From the NCBI RefSeq assembly GCF_000243315.1, contig NZ_JH597768.1, positions 265,467 through 329,466 on the forward strand: a stretch of DNA of 64,000 bases. The letters run 5' to 3'. Shown here one piece after another: positions 9,309-56,630 of the stretch. The stretch is from Metallosphaera yellowstonensis MK1 (GTDB lineage Archaea > Thermoproteota > Thermoprotei_A > Sulfolobales > Sulfolobaceae). Within the stretch, counting starts at the first letter, position 1. Every line of letters starts with the position of its first letter. A model generated the notes under the pieces. That model made no database searches. It was given only the letters and a program-made list of their open reading frames with translations, and had not been told where the DNA came from. Position numbers and translations under genes: made by a program.

Positions 9309-9998
9309 TTGAGAGTCATTCTACTGGGAACGGGAGCTGGGAGCACGGTTGGGAGCAGCAGGTTCAAATCGGGAGTGTTGGTTGAGAGCGGAGAGGACAA
9401 AGTACTGTTGGATTTCGGCTCTGGGGTAAGTATGCGATTGGAGGACATGAACAAGATTCCACGCGCAGTTTTCATCACTCATCTGCACGTAGATCACTTC
9501 TCTGGGATTTTCGATCATTTAGTACAGAGGGCGATTCAAGGTCTTCCAGATATAAGGGTTTATTCTCCCCCGGGTTTTCTGGAGGTACTCTCAAGCTACA
9601 AGAGAGCTGGAAATCAGATATCGGCAGAGGTTAGAGAGGACGGACTTCCCCAGGGAGGTGAGGGAGAGTTGGAGGTCTACTCCGTGGGAGCTTGTCACAA
9701 AATCTACGCTGTCTCATACATCATCACCGATGGGAGAAAGAGGATCCTATACTCTGGGGACACGTCAGAACCGTGTGAGGATGTGTTGAGGGAGTCTAGA
9801 AAGGTAGACTTGGTAATACACGAAGCTAGCTGTCTGGAGAACTGCAAGCAATGGGGTCACACGTCTTTGAAGGAAGTATTGGAAATGTTCAATAAACCCG
9901 TGATCACTCACATACCTGCACAGCTTTCTAAGAAATTTGAAGAGTTGACTGGAGACAGGGGTATACTAGCGAAGGACGGGTTGGTCATAGATGTGTAG
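9309..9998 (+). CDS. MBL-fold metal-dependent hydrolase (RNase Z-like)
   Basis: 229 residues of the metallo-beta-lactamase fold: LLGTGAGSTVGSSRFKSG at the start, LLDFGSG, the metal site THLHVDHFSG (56-65), and later YSGDTSEPC and VIHEASC with further metal ligands. The arrangement resembles RNase Z/ElaC or phosphodiesterase-like members, but the length (usual RNase Z about 300) and missing exosite make tRNA processing doubtful. A TTG start follows a purine-rich stretch (GGAAAGGGGAG). Its end overlaps the next gene by 8 nt. Confidence 0.8.
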   Translation: MRVILLGTGAGSTVGSSRFKSGVLVESGEDKVLLDFGSGVSMRLEDMNKIPRAVFITHLHVDHFSGIFDHLVQRAIQGLPDIRVYSPPGFLEVLSSYKRAGNQISAEVREDGLPQGGEGELEVYSVGACHKIYAVSYIITDGRKRILYSGDTSEPCEDVLRESRKVDLVIHEASCLENCKQWGHTSLKEVLEMFNKPVITHIPAQLSKKFEELTGDRGILAKDGLVIDV

Positions 9999-10698
9999 GT
10001 TCGTAGCTTTCAGAGCTGAGGGAGAGGTGGATCCAAACGTCCTCGAATCCCTGATTAAGGCCTCTGATAAGGATCCCTATTCCAGTTTCGGATCCCATCC
10101 TGACGGTTGGGGATTCGTGATCTATTTTAGGGACGATGGATGGTCTAAAATTTATTATACTTCTCGGAAACCTATTTTCAAGGACCCCAACGTAAAATTC
10201 CTGAGTTCCATAAGGGGGGACGAGCTAGTAGGAATTATTCACGCCCGGAGAAGCTCTAAAAAGTTCCTGTTGGGTCCGTCCCACGCCCACCCCTATTTCC
10301 TCAGGGCGGGGCCCTATGAACTCTTCCTAGCCCACAACGGATCCATTAGTAGAGTTGGATTCACCGAACCCAATCTCCCATATACCGACAGTTTCGTCAT
10401 GCTTATGGAGGTGGCCAAGAGAGTTCAAGAAGGAATGGATCCAGTCGAGTCATACTCCAGGGTAACCAAGGAGTTAAGACAATGGAGTACCAGCCTCAAC
10501 TCTTCGCTCCTATTTTACGGGGAGGGAGTGGGCCCCAGCCTATATGTTTACTATTACTATAACAAGGAAAAGATGAGGGAGAAGGAGGAGTACTACAGAC
10601 TCTACAGGAGTGGGGGATATATTTTCTCATCCTCAGTTAATTATTACTTAAGAGGTATTGGGAGGGAGTTACCTTACGATGAACTGACCGAATTGTAA
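9991..10698 (+). CDS. Class II glutamine amidotransferase domain protein
   Basis: 235 residues starting MCRFVAF, with Cys2 as the N-terminal nucleophile once Met is removed. HPDGWGFVIY, HARRSS and LAHNGSI match the class II (Ntn) amidotransferase core of the YafJ/GAT-only type. These proteins hydrolyse glutamine or a related amide; no synthetase domain is attached. It ends a chain of four overlapping or close genes (7196-10698), suggesting shared expression, though I cannot name the pathway. Confidence 0.82.
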   Translation: MCRFVAFRAEGEVDPNVLESLIKASDKDPYSSFGSHPDGWGFVIYFRDDGWSKIYYTSRKPIFKDPNVKFLSSIRGDELVGIIHARRSSKKFLLGPSHAHPYFLRAGPYELFLAHNGSISRVGFTEPNLPYTDSFVMLMEVAKRVQEGMDPVESYSRVTKELRQWSTSLNSSLLFYGEGVGPSLYVYYYYNKEKMREKEEYYRLYRSGGYIFSSSVNYYLRGIGRELPYDELTEL

Positions 10699-10985
10699 TA
10701 GAATTTCATTTTTCCCTTTGAGCTAATCTCCTGGTAAGGAAAGTCAGGGGCATTCAGGTCTCCATTGCAATTTCATTTTGTTTCAGTAGCTTAAGCGTAA
10801 TAATTGATCATACGTGGTCGGGGCGACTTCTTCTCTGCCTCATTGACGTGGCAGGTTACATTCAACTAATCCTACATAGAATTAGCCTAATTTAAGAGAG
10901 ATATTAGAATTCGCAATGGAGCCCTGAATGGCCTGGAAGTCACCTCAACCTCCTCTTTTATAAGGTCAGTGGAGAATCATATTAT
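10699..10985. other. Non-coding leader region upstream of the mini TnpB-like gene
   Basis: 287 bases with no open frame of note. Apart from the TATA box at its end I see no classic hairpin of an IS end and no tRNA. It would be the place to look for a separately encoded guide RNA if the following nuclease uses one, since only 37 nt lie downstream of that gene. Confidence 0.4.
10955..10964 (+). promoter_or_regulatory. TATA box of the TnpB-like gene
   Basis: CTTTTATAAG matches the archaeal TATA consensus closely and is centred 26 nt before the ATG at 10986. This predicts a leaderless, independently expressed transcript, which is unlike a passive transposon relic. Confidence 0.65.
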
Positions 10986-11816
10986 ATGAAAGAGCGACTA
11001 ATAGAGGCTAAGATAGTAGACTTCGGAAAACTCAAGGAAATTTACAGTGACATAGTCTATTACATCCAATACACTAAAGCATTAGAGAGAACTGGAGCCA
11101 AGGAGAAGCCCAATCCTCCCCCCTCACTTAGGGGACTCAGTTTACTATATAGTAAGCTTAGGATAGGACCGTTGAAGGTGGTGAACACGGGGAACCTCTT
11201 TAAACTGGAGAAAGTTGACGCCAAAGTCTCCTCAGATCAAGGAGGACAACCGGCCTATGCCATAGTGGACTTCTCCGATGGAATTAAGGTCTATTTGGCT
11301 TACGTGACTGAGGATCCAATAGTAGGAGTTGACCTGGGAATAAGACACCTCTTCACAGTAGTTGCCATACTGGACGGTGGAAAGGTCTTCAGGACCAAAT
11401 ACATAGGGAATGGATCACTGATTGAAACGTTCACGAAATACATGGGGGAGGGGCAGGGATTATCCTATATCGCCGAGATCAGGAGTAAGGTGAGAGGAGC
11501 TGTAAAGGAATTAGCTGACTTCATGGAGGAGGTGAGTCCCAAGGTGGTGGCGCTGGAGGATCTGAGGTATTATGAAGCTAGAATAGGGAAAGGATTGAGA
11601 TTGGTTGAAGACCTCTTGGAAAAGGAGTTCATAGAGAGGGGAATAAGGTTCAAGAGGCTCGACCCACATAACACTTCCAGGATATGTTCCAGATGCGGTT
11701 ACAAGAAGGGTGAAATTTTAGGCTCAATCTTCGTTTGCCCTGCGTGTGGTTATAAGGTGGACAGGGACTTCAACGCTGCATACAACCTCGCCATGAAATG
11801 CTATTACACCTGCTAG
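10986..11816 (+). CDS. Short stand-alone TnpB-like RuvC nuclease
   Basis: 276 residues. The RuvC core looks complete: motif I VGVDLGIR (D116), motif II VALEDLR (E191), a four-Cys zinc ribbon (C234, C237, C251, C254) and motif III DRDFNAAYN (D261). TnpB is normally about 400 residues with some 180 before motif I; here only 112 precede it and the stretch between motif II and the ribbon is also short. No tnpA, no terminal hairpins and no 3' guide-RNA region are seen; the next gene's TATA box begins 5 nt after the stop. It has its own strong TATA box. It may be a domesticated TnpB descendant; activity is unproven. Confidence 0.85.
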   Translation: MKERLIEAKIVDFGKLKEIYSDIVYYIQYTKALERTGAKEKPNPPPSLRGLSLLYSKLRIGPLKVVNTGNLFKLEKVDAKVSSDQGGQPAYAIVDFSDGIKVYLAYVTEDPIVGVDLGIRHLFTVVAILDGGKVFRTKYIGNGSLIETFTKYMGEGQGLSYIAEIRSKVRGAVKELADFMEEVSPKVVALEDLRYYEARIGKGLRLVEDLLEKEFIERGIRFKRLDPHNTSRICSRCGYKKGEILGSIFVCPACGYKVDRDFNAAYNLAMKCYYTC

Positions 11817-11853: not shown

Positions 11854-12915
11854 ATGAATTATGAAGTGAGGATGAAACGTCTCAAGGAGATGATGTCGCA
11901 GAGGCGTATTGACGCAGTGATCCTGGGGCCCACTAGTAACATGTTCTATCTCACTGGGTTCAGGGAGGAACAGATGGAGAGACCACTCCTACTGGTTGTG
12001 GGTGAAGAGGACTTTGTCTTAGCTCCCAAGATATATGAGGAACAGCTCTCAACCGTGGGGTTGGAGATTCGATCCTACAGGGATGGGGAAGATCCTTACT
12101 CACTCATGAGACTTAAAAAGGGATCGTCCATAGCCATAGATGATCAACTGTGGTCACTATTTCTCGTCGAGATCCTCAATAGATTTCTACCCTCCAACAT
12201 CAGTCCTGCCTCCGTAATAATGAAGGAGTTGAGAGAGGTGAAGGACGAAGAGGAGATAAGGGCCTTGAGGAGCGGGTTGTCAATAGCCGAGAAGTCCTTC
12301 TTGGAGTTCACGGATAAGGTCAAGGAGGGAGAGAACGAGTGCAGATTAGCCAGAGAATTGGAATGGTTGTTCATTGAGAATGGTGCTGAGGGGACTTCGT
12401 TCAGTCCCATCCTGACTTCCGGACCCAACACCTCAATGCCTCACCTGAGATGCACCTCCAGAAAAGTAAAGAGGGGGGATGTTATAATAGCAGATTTTGG
12501 AATAAAATTTAAAGGTTATTCCACAGATACGACGCGTGTGTTGACTTTAGGTCCTCCTTCTGAGGATGTCAAACGCATCTGGTCCATAGTGGTTGAGGCC
12601 ATAGCAGAAGCTGAGAGCTCGACGTTAGGATCAACGGGCAAGGACATAGACTGGAGGGCCCGAAAGGTGATATCTTCCAAGGGATTCGGGGAAAATTTCA
12701 TTCATAGAACCGGTCACGGTATAGGAATAGACGTACATGAGGATCCCTACATAGCTCCTGATAACTTGGTTGAGGTGAAGAGAGGTAGCACGTTCACCAT
12801 AGAGCCTGGAATATACCTTCCTGGAAAGTTTGGAATCAGGGTCGAGGAAATGGCAGTCATGAGGGACAAGGTAGAGATTCTCACCCAGTTGAGCAGGGAG
12901 ATCTTCACAGTTTGA
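11854..12915 (+). CDS. pepQ: M24-family Xaa-Pro peptidase (creatinase fold)
   Basis: 353 residues. An N-terminal creatinase-like domain (LGPTSNMFYLTGF near 28-40) precedes the pita-bread catalytic domain with its five metal ligands: IADFGIKFKGYSTDTTR (two Asp), HRTGHGIGIDVHEDP (His), TIEPGIY (Glu) and GIRVEEMAV (Glu). It cleaves Xaa-Pro bonds in peptides in the cytoplasm. The 3' end overlaps the convergent aminotransferase gene by 11 nt. Confidence 0.9.
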   Translation: MNYEVRMKRLKEMMSQRRIDAVILGPTSNMFYLTGFREEQMERPLLLVVGEEDFVLAPKIYEEQLSTVGLEIRSYRDGEDPYSLMRLKKGSSIAIDDQLWSLFLVEILNRFLPSNISPASVIMKELREVKDEEEIRALRSGLSIAEKSFLEFTDKVKEGENECRLARELEWLFIENGAEGTSFSPILTSGPNTSMPHLRCTSRKVKRGDVIIADFGIKFKGYSTDTTRVLTLGPPSEDVKRIWSIVVEAIAEAESSTLGSTGKDIDWRARKVISSKGFGENFIHRTGHGIGIDVHEDPYIAPDNLVEVKRGSTFTIEPGIYLPGKFGIRVEEMAVMRDKVEILTQLSREIFTV

Positions 12916-15548: not shown

Positions 15549-15803
15549 GTTAGAGGGGTTCGGGCTTCATTGAATTTTCATGAATTTGTATCCAATTCTC
15601 AGCCCTTGAGCTTCACCGGGGTCACGGGGAAACCCGTTACCCCTCCGCCCCCTTAACGGGGTAACCCCAACCCACCTACTCCCAGTGGGAGTGAGAAAGA
15701 GGTGGGGAAACCCGCACATCTTGAGGAAGATATTCAAGGATGCGTTCAGTTGCCTGTCCAGGGTGAACCCACACCTCTCATACCTGAAAGTCCTACCTTT
15801 CGG
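15549..15803 (-). pseudogene. 3' end fragment of an IS607-type tnpB
   Basis: This stretch read on the minus strand is roughly 88-90% identical by eye to the 3' part of the TnpB relic at 56375-56630, including the zinc-ribbon end, the GC-rich tail and the AT-rich element end near 15549. It stops exactly at 15803, where the terminal repeat of a DDE element begins. With the TnpA fragment at 16964-17183 on the same strand it appears to be what remains of one tnpA-tnpB element. Confidence 0.75.
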
Positions 15804-55985: not shown

Positions 55986-56630
55986 TTGAAGGAGTTGTAC
56001 AGCCTCAAGTTTGGGATGGAGTTGAAGAGGGGTAGAATCAAGTCCTTCGCTTCCAAGCACGGTAGGAAAGGGGAGTTGTTGATGAGGAAGTACTCACACC
56101 GTGAAAGGGACCGCGTGCTGAATTACGTTCACAAGTTCGTCAACAAGTTGCTGGAGATGTACCCACTCACTACGTTCGCTATAGAGAAGTTGAACAAACA
56201 AAAGATGTTCCAAGACGCTAACGACAAGTTGTGTAAGAAGATTTCAAGGACTGTATGGAGGAGTATTCATCGTGTGTTGAAGTACAAGGCCCCACTTTAC
56301 GGCTCCCTAGTTAAGGAGGTGAACCCGCATTTAACTTCCAAGTCCTGCCCCAGATGTGGACGGATTTCCCGAAAGGTAGGACTTTCAGGTGTGAGAGGTG
56401 TGGTTTCACTCTAGATAGGCAGTTGAACGCATCCCTCAACATCTTCCTCAAGATGTGCGGGTTTCCCCACCTCTTTCTCACTCCCTCTGGGAGTAGGTGG
56501 GTTGGGGTTACCCCGCTAAGGGGGCGGAGGAGTAAGGGTTTCCCCGCGACTCCTGTGAAGCCCAAGGGCTGAGAATTGGTTACAAATTCATGAAAATTCA
56601 ATGAAGCCCTAACCCCCTCTTCATCATGAG
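55986..56630 (+). pseudogene. Decayed IS607-type tnpB, 5' truncated and frameshifted
   Basis: A TnpB with no N-terminal half and no first RuvC motif. The visible frame has KGELLMRKYSHRERDRVLNYVHKFVNKLLEMYP, the second RuvC motif TFAIEKLNKQ and KSCPRCGRISRK. A frame shift around 56375 moves the rest to another frame: GRTFRCERCGFTLDRQLNASLNIF (second zinc knuckle and third RuvC motif) and a Pro/Gly-rich tail. The end (56575-56630) is shared with the inverted fragment at 15549-15803. Not functional. Confidence 0.85.

What the first reader, a model, noticed from the sequence alone, without database searches (positions are those of the whole stretch)
10986..11816. Miniature, apparently active TnpB-like nuclease outside any transposon
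Seen: a 276-residue protein with the complete RuvC triad (D116, E191, D261) and a four-Cys ribbon, but only 112 residues before motif I. A near-consensus TATA box (10955-10964) drives it, there is no tnpA, no end hairpins, and the next gene's promoter starts 5 nt after its stop, leaving no room for a 3' omega-RNA. Known: TnpB (IS200/605, IS607) is an RNA-guided nuclease of about 400 residues, and host-captured derivatives exist (for example TldR repressors, which have lost catalysis). Inference: a captured, miniaturised TnpB lineage with intact catalysis, perhaps using a trans-encoded guide or DNA structure.
Basis: partly seen in the sequence, partly recalled or inferred. Interest (0 to 1): 0.7.

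Follow-up and report, generated by a model that had tools for sequence, protein, structure and literature searches.

The report
Captured mini-TnpB nuclease of Sulfolobaceae
A jumping-gene enzyme of the TnpB kind (ancestor of CRISPR Cas12) was captured once by heat- and acid-loving archaea of the Sulfolobus family, shrank to 276 residues, lost its guide-RNA gene but kept its cutting site, and has since been kept as an ordinary single-copy host gene, so it is probably a working nuclease with a new job.

Summary
ORF 10986-11816 (276 aa) has an intact TnpB-type RuvC triad (D116/E191/D261) and Cys4 ribbon. The same full-length protein occurs once in 30 of 31 genomes of the family (the exception is 79% complete) and in none of 198 other genomes of the class, mostly at the same locus, as one clade. 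Triad and Cys4 are invariant; dN/dS is about 0.01-0.1 in most measurable pairs. No virus or plasmid copy was found. The predicted structure keeps the WED barrel and RuvC/TNB core, with REC cut from four helices to one. In 13 of 29 relatives the gene is wedged between neighbours, so there is no cis omega-RNA. One complete relative keeps it with no other TnpB above threshold, arguing against a borrowed transposon guide. Most of the positive charge TnpB uses to bind RNA is gone. The upstream gap in this window is a MITE insertion, not a guide gene. Best reading: a once-captured host nuclease with catalysis retained, probably guide-independent, substrate unknown. Domestication is firmly supported; guide-free action is inferred. 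No published description was found in the open-access library; annotation in named genomes was not checked.

The parts
10986..11816 (+). mini-TnpB gene, 276 aa, single copy, RuvC + TNB core with compact N-terminal domain
10986..11321 (+). N-terminal domain (residues 1-112): WED-like beta barrel; strand b1 2-12, barrel 59-108
   Evidence: AlphaFold2 models; Foldseek ranks TnpB chains 1-4 and 6 but with weak E-values; no sequence match
11022..11159 (+). shrunken REC-equivalent (residues 13-58): one helix 16-36 plus loop, where ISDra2 TnpB has four helices over 104 residues
   Evidence: domain limits from PMC10097598
11331..11333 (+). RuvC motif I Asp (D116), invariant
11556..11558 (+). RuvC motif II Glu (E191), invariant
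11766..11768 (+). RuvC motif III Asp (D261) in DRDFN, invariant
11685..11747 (+). TNB zinc ribbon, C234/C237 and C251/C254, invariant
10955..10964 (+). TATA box about 30 nt before the ATG; leaderless promoter, conserved in orthologues
10744..10934 (.). MITE inserted upstream of the promoter in this genome (inverted repeats 10748-10774 and 10907-10933); explains the long gap, not a guide locus
9991..10698 (+). conserved upstream neighbour, predicted class-II glutamine-amidotransferase-like protein (name inferred from the MCR start; no Pfam hit)
11854..12915 (+). M24 peptidase; direct neighbour in 7 of 29 relatives, one gene further on in 13

Best explanation
A TnpB from an IS200/IS605-type element was immobilised once in or before the ancestor of the Sulfolobaceae and became a host gene. 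It lost the transposon ends, TnpA, the omega-RNA region, most of the REC domain and most of the RNA-binding charge. It kept the WED-like barrel, the RuvC active site and the TNB zinc ribbon. It most likely works as a metal-dependent host endonuclease that recognises structured or single-stranded nucleic acid directly, without a guide, using the RuvC site with the TNB ribbon helping to load the strand. SHOWN: single origin, vertical descent, purifying selection, invariant catalytic residues, absence of a cis guide locus. INFERRED: catalysis, guide independence, substrate.
For: One full-length copy in 30 of 31 family genomes and in 0 of 198 other class genomes; an evenly drawn phylum sample also gave full-length matches only in this family. 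One clade, SH-aLRT 99. Upstream gene order conserved in 25 of 29; identity tracks that of neighbouring genes, rho 0.49-0.80. dN/dS 0.01-0.10 in nearly all measurable pairs. Triad and Cys4 invariant in 30 of 30. hhalign core match to TnpB 99.8%; full-length Foldseek best hits Cas12f/TnpB at E down to 2e-11. No room for a guide in 13 of 29 genomes, no Rfam match, no dip in synonymous change at the 3' end. Retained in G005 without another TnpB above cut-off. Net charge per 100 aa about 2-4 (5.7 in one row truncated by the start chosen) against 8-10.5 in resident TnpBs; motif I-II segment +2.8 against +14.2 and N-terminus +2.6 against +16.7 in 19 TnpBs. The RuvC site of TnpB can cut RNA before any guide is loaded (AmaTnpB, PMC10278001), so guide-free activity has precedent.
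Against: No biochemical, expression or knockout evidence was available. A guide encoded elsewhere and unrelated to a TnpB gene cannot be excluded by genome reading. Guide-free recognition is not demonstrated, in what I read, for any native TnpB relative beyond cutting its own mRNA. Conserved active-site residues could in principle serve binding only. The WED identification of the N-terminus rests on a model and weak Foldseek scores (E 0.25 and above). The tree's deep branches are long and the position relative to particular TnpB clades is unsure.
Confidence: 0.5

Rival explanations
1. A domesticated, still RNA-guided nuclease that uses a guide RNA encoded in trans elsewhere in the genome.
For: RuvC, TNB and a WED-like barrel, the parts that hold omega-RNA in TnpB, are kept. 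The full-length protein is still mildly basic, pI about 9.
Against: No cis guide. Kept in G005 with no other TnpB above cut-off. REC, which with RuvC holds the guide-target duplex and with WED reads the TAM (PMC10097598), is almost gone. Basic residues of the RuvC segment that binds omega-RNA in TnpB are strongly depleted.
Confidence: 0.2
2. A guide-free ribonuclease that processes or degrades host RNA, derived from the mRNA-processing activity of TnpB.
For: The RuvC site of AmaTnpB cuts its own mRNA without a pre-bound guide (PMC10278001). The WED-like OB barrel could bind RNA.
Against: No conserved RNA motif or partner gene was found. Neighbour genes are metabolic.
Confidence: 0.15
3. A non-catalytic binding protein or regulator (TldR-like use) whose active-site residues are kept for fold or metal binding.
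For: Known TnpB domestications include TldR repressors (PMC13418256).
Against: All three catalytic residues are invariant over the whole family, whereas TldRs are defined by RuvC inactivation.
Confidence: 0.12
4. A recent truncated transposon relic.
For: The resident genome is rich in TnpB genes and fragments (70 PF07282 matches), including broken ones in this window.
Against: 30 intact full-length orthologues, purifying selection, conserved locus and promoter.
Confidence: 0.01

Closest known systems
Typical TnpB (IS200/IS605, e.g. ISDra2 TnpB; resident TnpBs of about 382 aa, L002)
   Same: RuvC with D/E/D triad, TNB CCCC zinc ribbon inserted before motif III, DRDxN signature, WED-like N-terminal barrel topology
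   Different: 276 aa not 350-450; REC one helix instead of four; low net charge; no transposon ends, no tnpA, no omega-RNA; single-copy and vertically inherited
TldR (TnpB-like nuclease-dead repressors)
   Same: TnpB exapted for a host-side role outside transposition
   Different: TldRs lost catalysis and kept a neighbouring guide; this protein kept the catalytic residues and lost the guide
Cas12f
   Same: Best full-length structural matches; compact RuvC-TNB effector
   Different: No CRISPR or guide context seen; N-terminal lobe far smaller
Fanzor
   Same: TnpB-derived proteins with intact RuvC
   Different: Fanzors have large REC/WED lobes and omega-RNAs
RuvC-type resolvases
   Same: RNase H fold with acidic catalytic residues; weak Foldseek match to a phage RuvC
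   Different: Sequence and TNB ribbon place it with TnpB, not with resolvases; resolvase activity untested

Membership tests
TnpB superfamily (by descent) | RuvC D/E/D triad with TNB zinc ribbon between motifs II and III | tested here: met
   PF07282 E 1.2e-17; hhalign 99.8% to TnpBs; invariant residues
TnpB superfamily (by descent) | NCBIfam guided_TnpB cut-off score | tested here: not met
   60.3 bits against cut-off 100
Functional transposon TnpB | REC domain of about 100 residues, four helices | tested here: not met
   One helix, about 46 residues in the models
Functional transposon TnpB | omega-RNA overlapping the 3' end and right transposon end | tested here: not met
   Next gene -3 to +7 nt away in 16 genomes, 3' flanks unrelated between genera, no Rfam hit, no synonymous constraint
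Functional transposon TnpB | Mobility: multiple copies, transposon ends, tnpA or IS context | tested here: not met
   Single copy at a conserved locus; none in viral contigs or plasmids
Functional transposon TnpB | RNA-guided DNA cleavage | not testable with these tools
   Needs RNA pull-down and cleavage assay
TldR | Inactivated RuvC | tested here: not met
   Triad invariant in 30 of 30
TldR | Adjacent guide RNA | tested here: not met
Cas12 effector | CRISPR array or cas genes next to it | tested here: inconclusive
   Neighbours in the window and in the relatives read are metabolic genes, no cas-like genes seen; no dedicated CRISPR-array search was run

The most novel reading that the evidence does not exclude
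A TnpB-derived, catalytically conserved host nuclease that has lost both REC and guide RNA and acts directly on nucleic-acid structure, fixed across a whole archaeal family: an evolutionary route from RNA-guided to guide-free nuclease, the reverse of the usual direction.
Probability: 0.5. Interest if true: 0.78.

Novelty: new variant of a known kind. Interest (0 to 1): 0.6.

Why it matters
Known TnpB exaptations either keep the guide and the cut (Cas12, Fanzor) or keep the guide and lose the cut (TldR). Here a family-wide host gene keeps the catalytic residues and appears to have lost the guide. That makes directly testable whether the RuvC-TNB core can be a guide-free enzyme and what host process uses it. 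It is present in genomes whose sizes match those of the genetically tractable S. acidocaldarius DSM 639 and of S. solfataricus P1 (identification from remembered genome sizes, not a tool result). It also marks a natural minimal TnpB scaffold.

Tried and rejected
Relic or recent truncation: rejected by orthology, selection and synteny. Cis guide upstream (10699-10985): rejected; this is a MITE present in several copies in the genome, and half of the relatives have less than 80 nt there. Cis guide downstream: rejected by tight or convergent neighbours. Unrelated new N-terminal fold: not supported; the models give WED-like topology, although sequence profiles find nothing. Obligate partner GATase-like gene: not obligate, since G001, G011, G013 and G021 carry the mini gene away from it. 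Wider spread: class, phylum, viral, plasmid and GTDB-wide pattern searches gave only ordinary TnpBs outside the family. G006, the one family member without a hit, also lacks a close GATase orthologue and is 79% complete, so it is uninformative.

Full report
WHAT IS THERE. The ORF at 10986-11816 (+) encodes 276 aa. D116, E191 and D261 and four ribbon cysteines (C234, C237, C251, C254) are present. Pfam assigns, above its cut-off, only the Cas12f1-like TNB domain (PF07282, E 1.2e-17). NCBIfam's guided_TnpB model matches the C-terminal part below its cut-off. So the C-terminal 160 residues are a TnpB RuvC-TNB core; a profile comparison with 16 TnpBs gives 99.8% probability over that part and nothing over the first 112 residues.

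DISTRIBUTION AND DESCENT. The genome holds one full-length copy; all other hits are ordinary TnpBs of about 380-430 aa, or their fragments, matching the core only. Full-length orthologues (272-282 aa by the ATG starts taken; one divergent row has an uncertain start) occur in 29 other genomes of the same family, one each, at 41-69% identity. A profile search over 229 genomes of the class gives 30 carriers, all in this family of 31 genomes, and none among 198 others. A phylum sample of 398 gives full-length matches only in the family. A pattern scan of GTDB species representatives, viral contigs and plasmids finds only core-level TnpB matches outside it. In a tree with other TnpBs the mini proteins form one clade (SH-aLRT 99), with subgroups that follow genera; branches are long and the sister clade is unsure.

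SELECTION AND LOCUS. The gene lies directly downstream of the same predicted GATase-like gene in 25 of 29 relatives, usually with the same MBL-fold, PfkB and HMP-kinase genes upstream. Identity to the window protein correlates with that of neighbours (rho 0.49-0.80). dN/dS is 0.01-0.10 in the pairs where synonymous change is measurable; one very close pair gives 0.37 from few changes. A TATA-like element 20-40 nt before the ATG is present in 29 of 29 (4.4 expected), so the gene has its own promoter and probably a leaderless mRNA.

ARCHITECTURE. AlphaFold2 with the 30-row alignment gives a usable model (mean pLDDT 86, pTM 0.63). The order is strand 2-12, helix 16-36, loop, barrel strands 59-108, then RNase H fold with TNB and a last helix. 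In ISDra2 TnpB, WED is 1-12 plus 117-176 and REC is four helices at 13-116 inserted after strand 1 (PMC10097598). The mini protein has the same order with REC cut to about 46 residues and one helix. Foldseek with the full model finds Cas12f and TnpB first. With the N-terminal domain alone, TnpB chains are ranks 1-4 and 6 out of 350,542, but with E-values of 0.25-1.8, so this is suggestive only.

GUIDE RNA. In 13 of 29 relatives the gene has 26-41 nt to the upstream gene and -3 to +7 nt to a convergent downstream gene. 3' flanks are unrelated between genera, Rfam finds nothing, and synonymous change is not reduced at the 3' end. The 287-nt gap upstream in this window is mostly a MITE: imperfect 27-nt inverted repeats, five near-full or long copies and dozens of partial ones in the genome. 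G005, a complete genome, keeps the mini gene with no other PF07282 match above cut-off, so the gene does not depend on resident TnpB elements. Net charge is about 2-4 per 100 residues (5.7 in one row truncated by start choice) against 8-10.5 in four resident TnpBs. The loss includes the N-terminus (+2.6 against +16.7) and the RuvC segment between motifs I and II (+2.8 against +14.2), the segment that carries omega-RNA-binding residues in TnpB.

MECHANISM. Strict retention of the triad argues for catalysis, and loss of guide locus, REC and charge argues against RNA guidance. The RuvC site of a TnpB can cut its own mRNA before any guide is loaded (PMC10278001), so a guide-free activity has a precedent. 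I therefore favour a guide-independent host endonuclease acting on structured or single-stranded nucleic acid. The steps 'captured once', 'vertically inherited', 'under selection' and 'no cis guide' are shown; 'active', 'guide-free' and 'substrate' are inferred. A trans-guide remains possible.

NOVELTY. Ten searches of the open-access library gave no description of this family. As a kind it is a variant of known TnpB exaptation, opposite to TldR in what was kept and lost.

Noticed in passing
window 10744-10934: A MITE-like element with imperfect 27-nt inverted repeats; near-full or long copies at G000 C17:32922, C19:773708, C19:798556, C17:30563, and more than 30 partial copies of one end, pointing to a parent IS. 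A possible imperfect target duplication (GGAAAGTCA/GGAAGTCA) flanks it.
   Followed up: partly
window about 112-318, 15729-15800 and 56256-56443: Pieces of ordinary TnpB genes (PF07282 matches; the one at 15729 below cut-off), one split between frames, in the same window, in contrast to the intact mini gene.
   Followed up: no
G000 whole genome: The genome carries 70 PF07282 matches (many of them pieces of one broken gene), far more than the ten relatives checked with the same family search.
   Followed up: no
residues 272-276 of the mini protein (window 11799-11813): A C-terminal CYYxC motif, nearly invariant in the family and not seen in the TnpBs aligned; could be an extra metal or disulfide site.
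   Followed up: no
window 9991-10698: GATase-like gene (MCRFVAF start) conserved next to the mini gene but without any Pfam match at E 0.001.
   Followed up: partly
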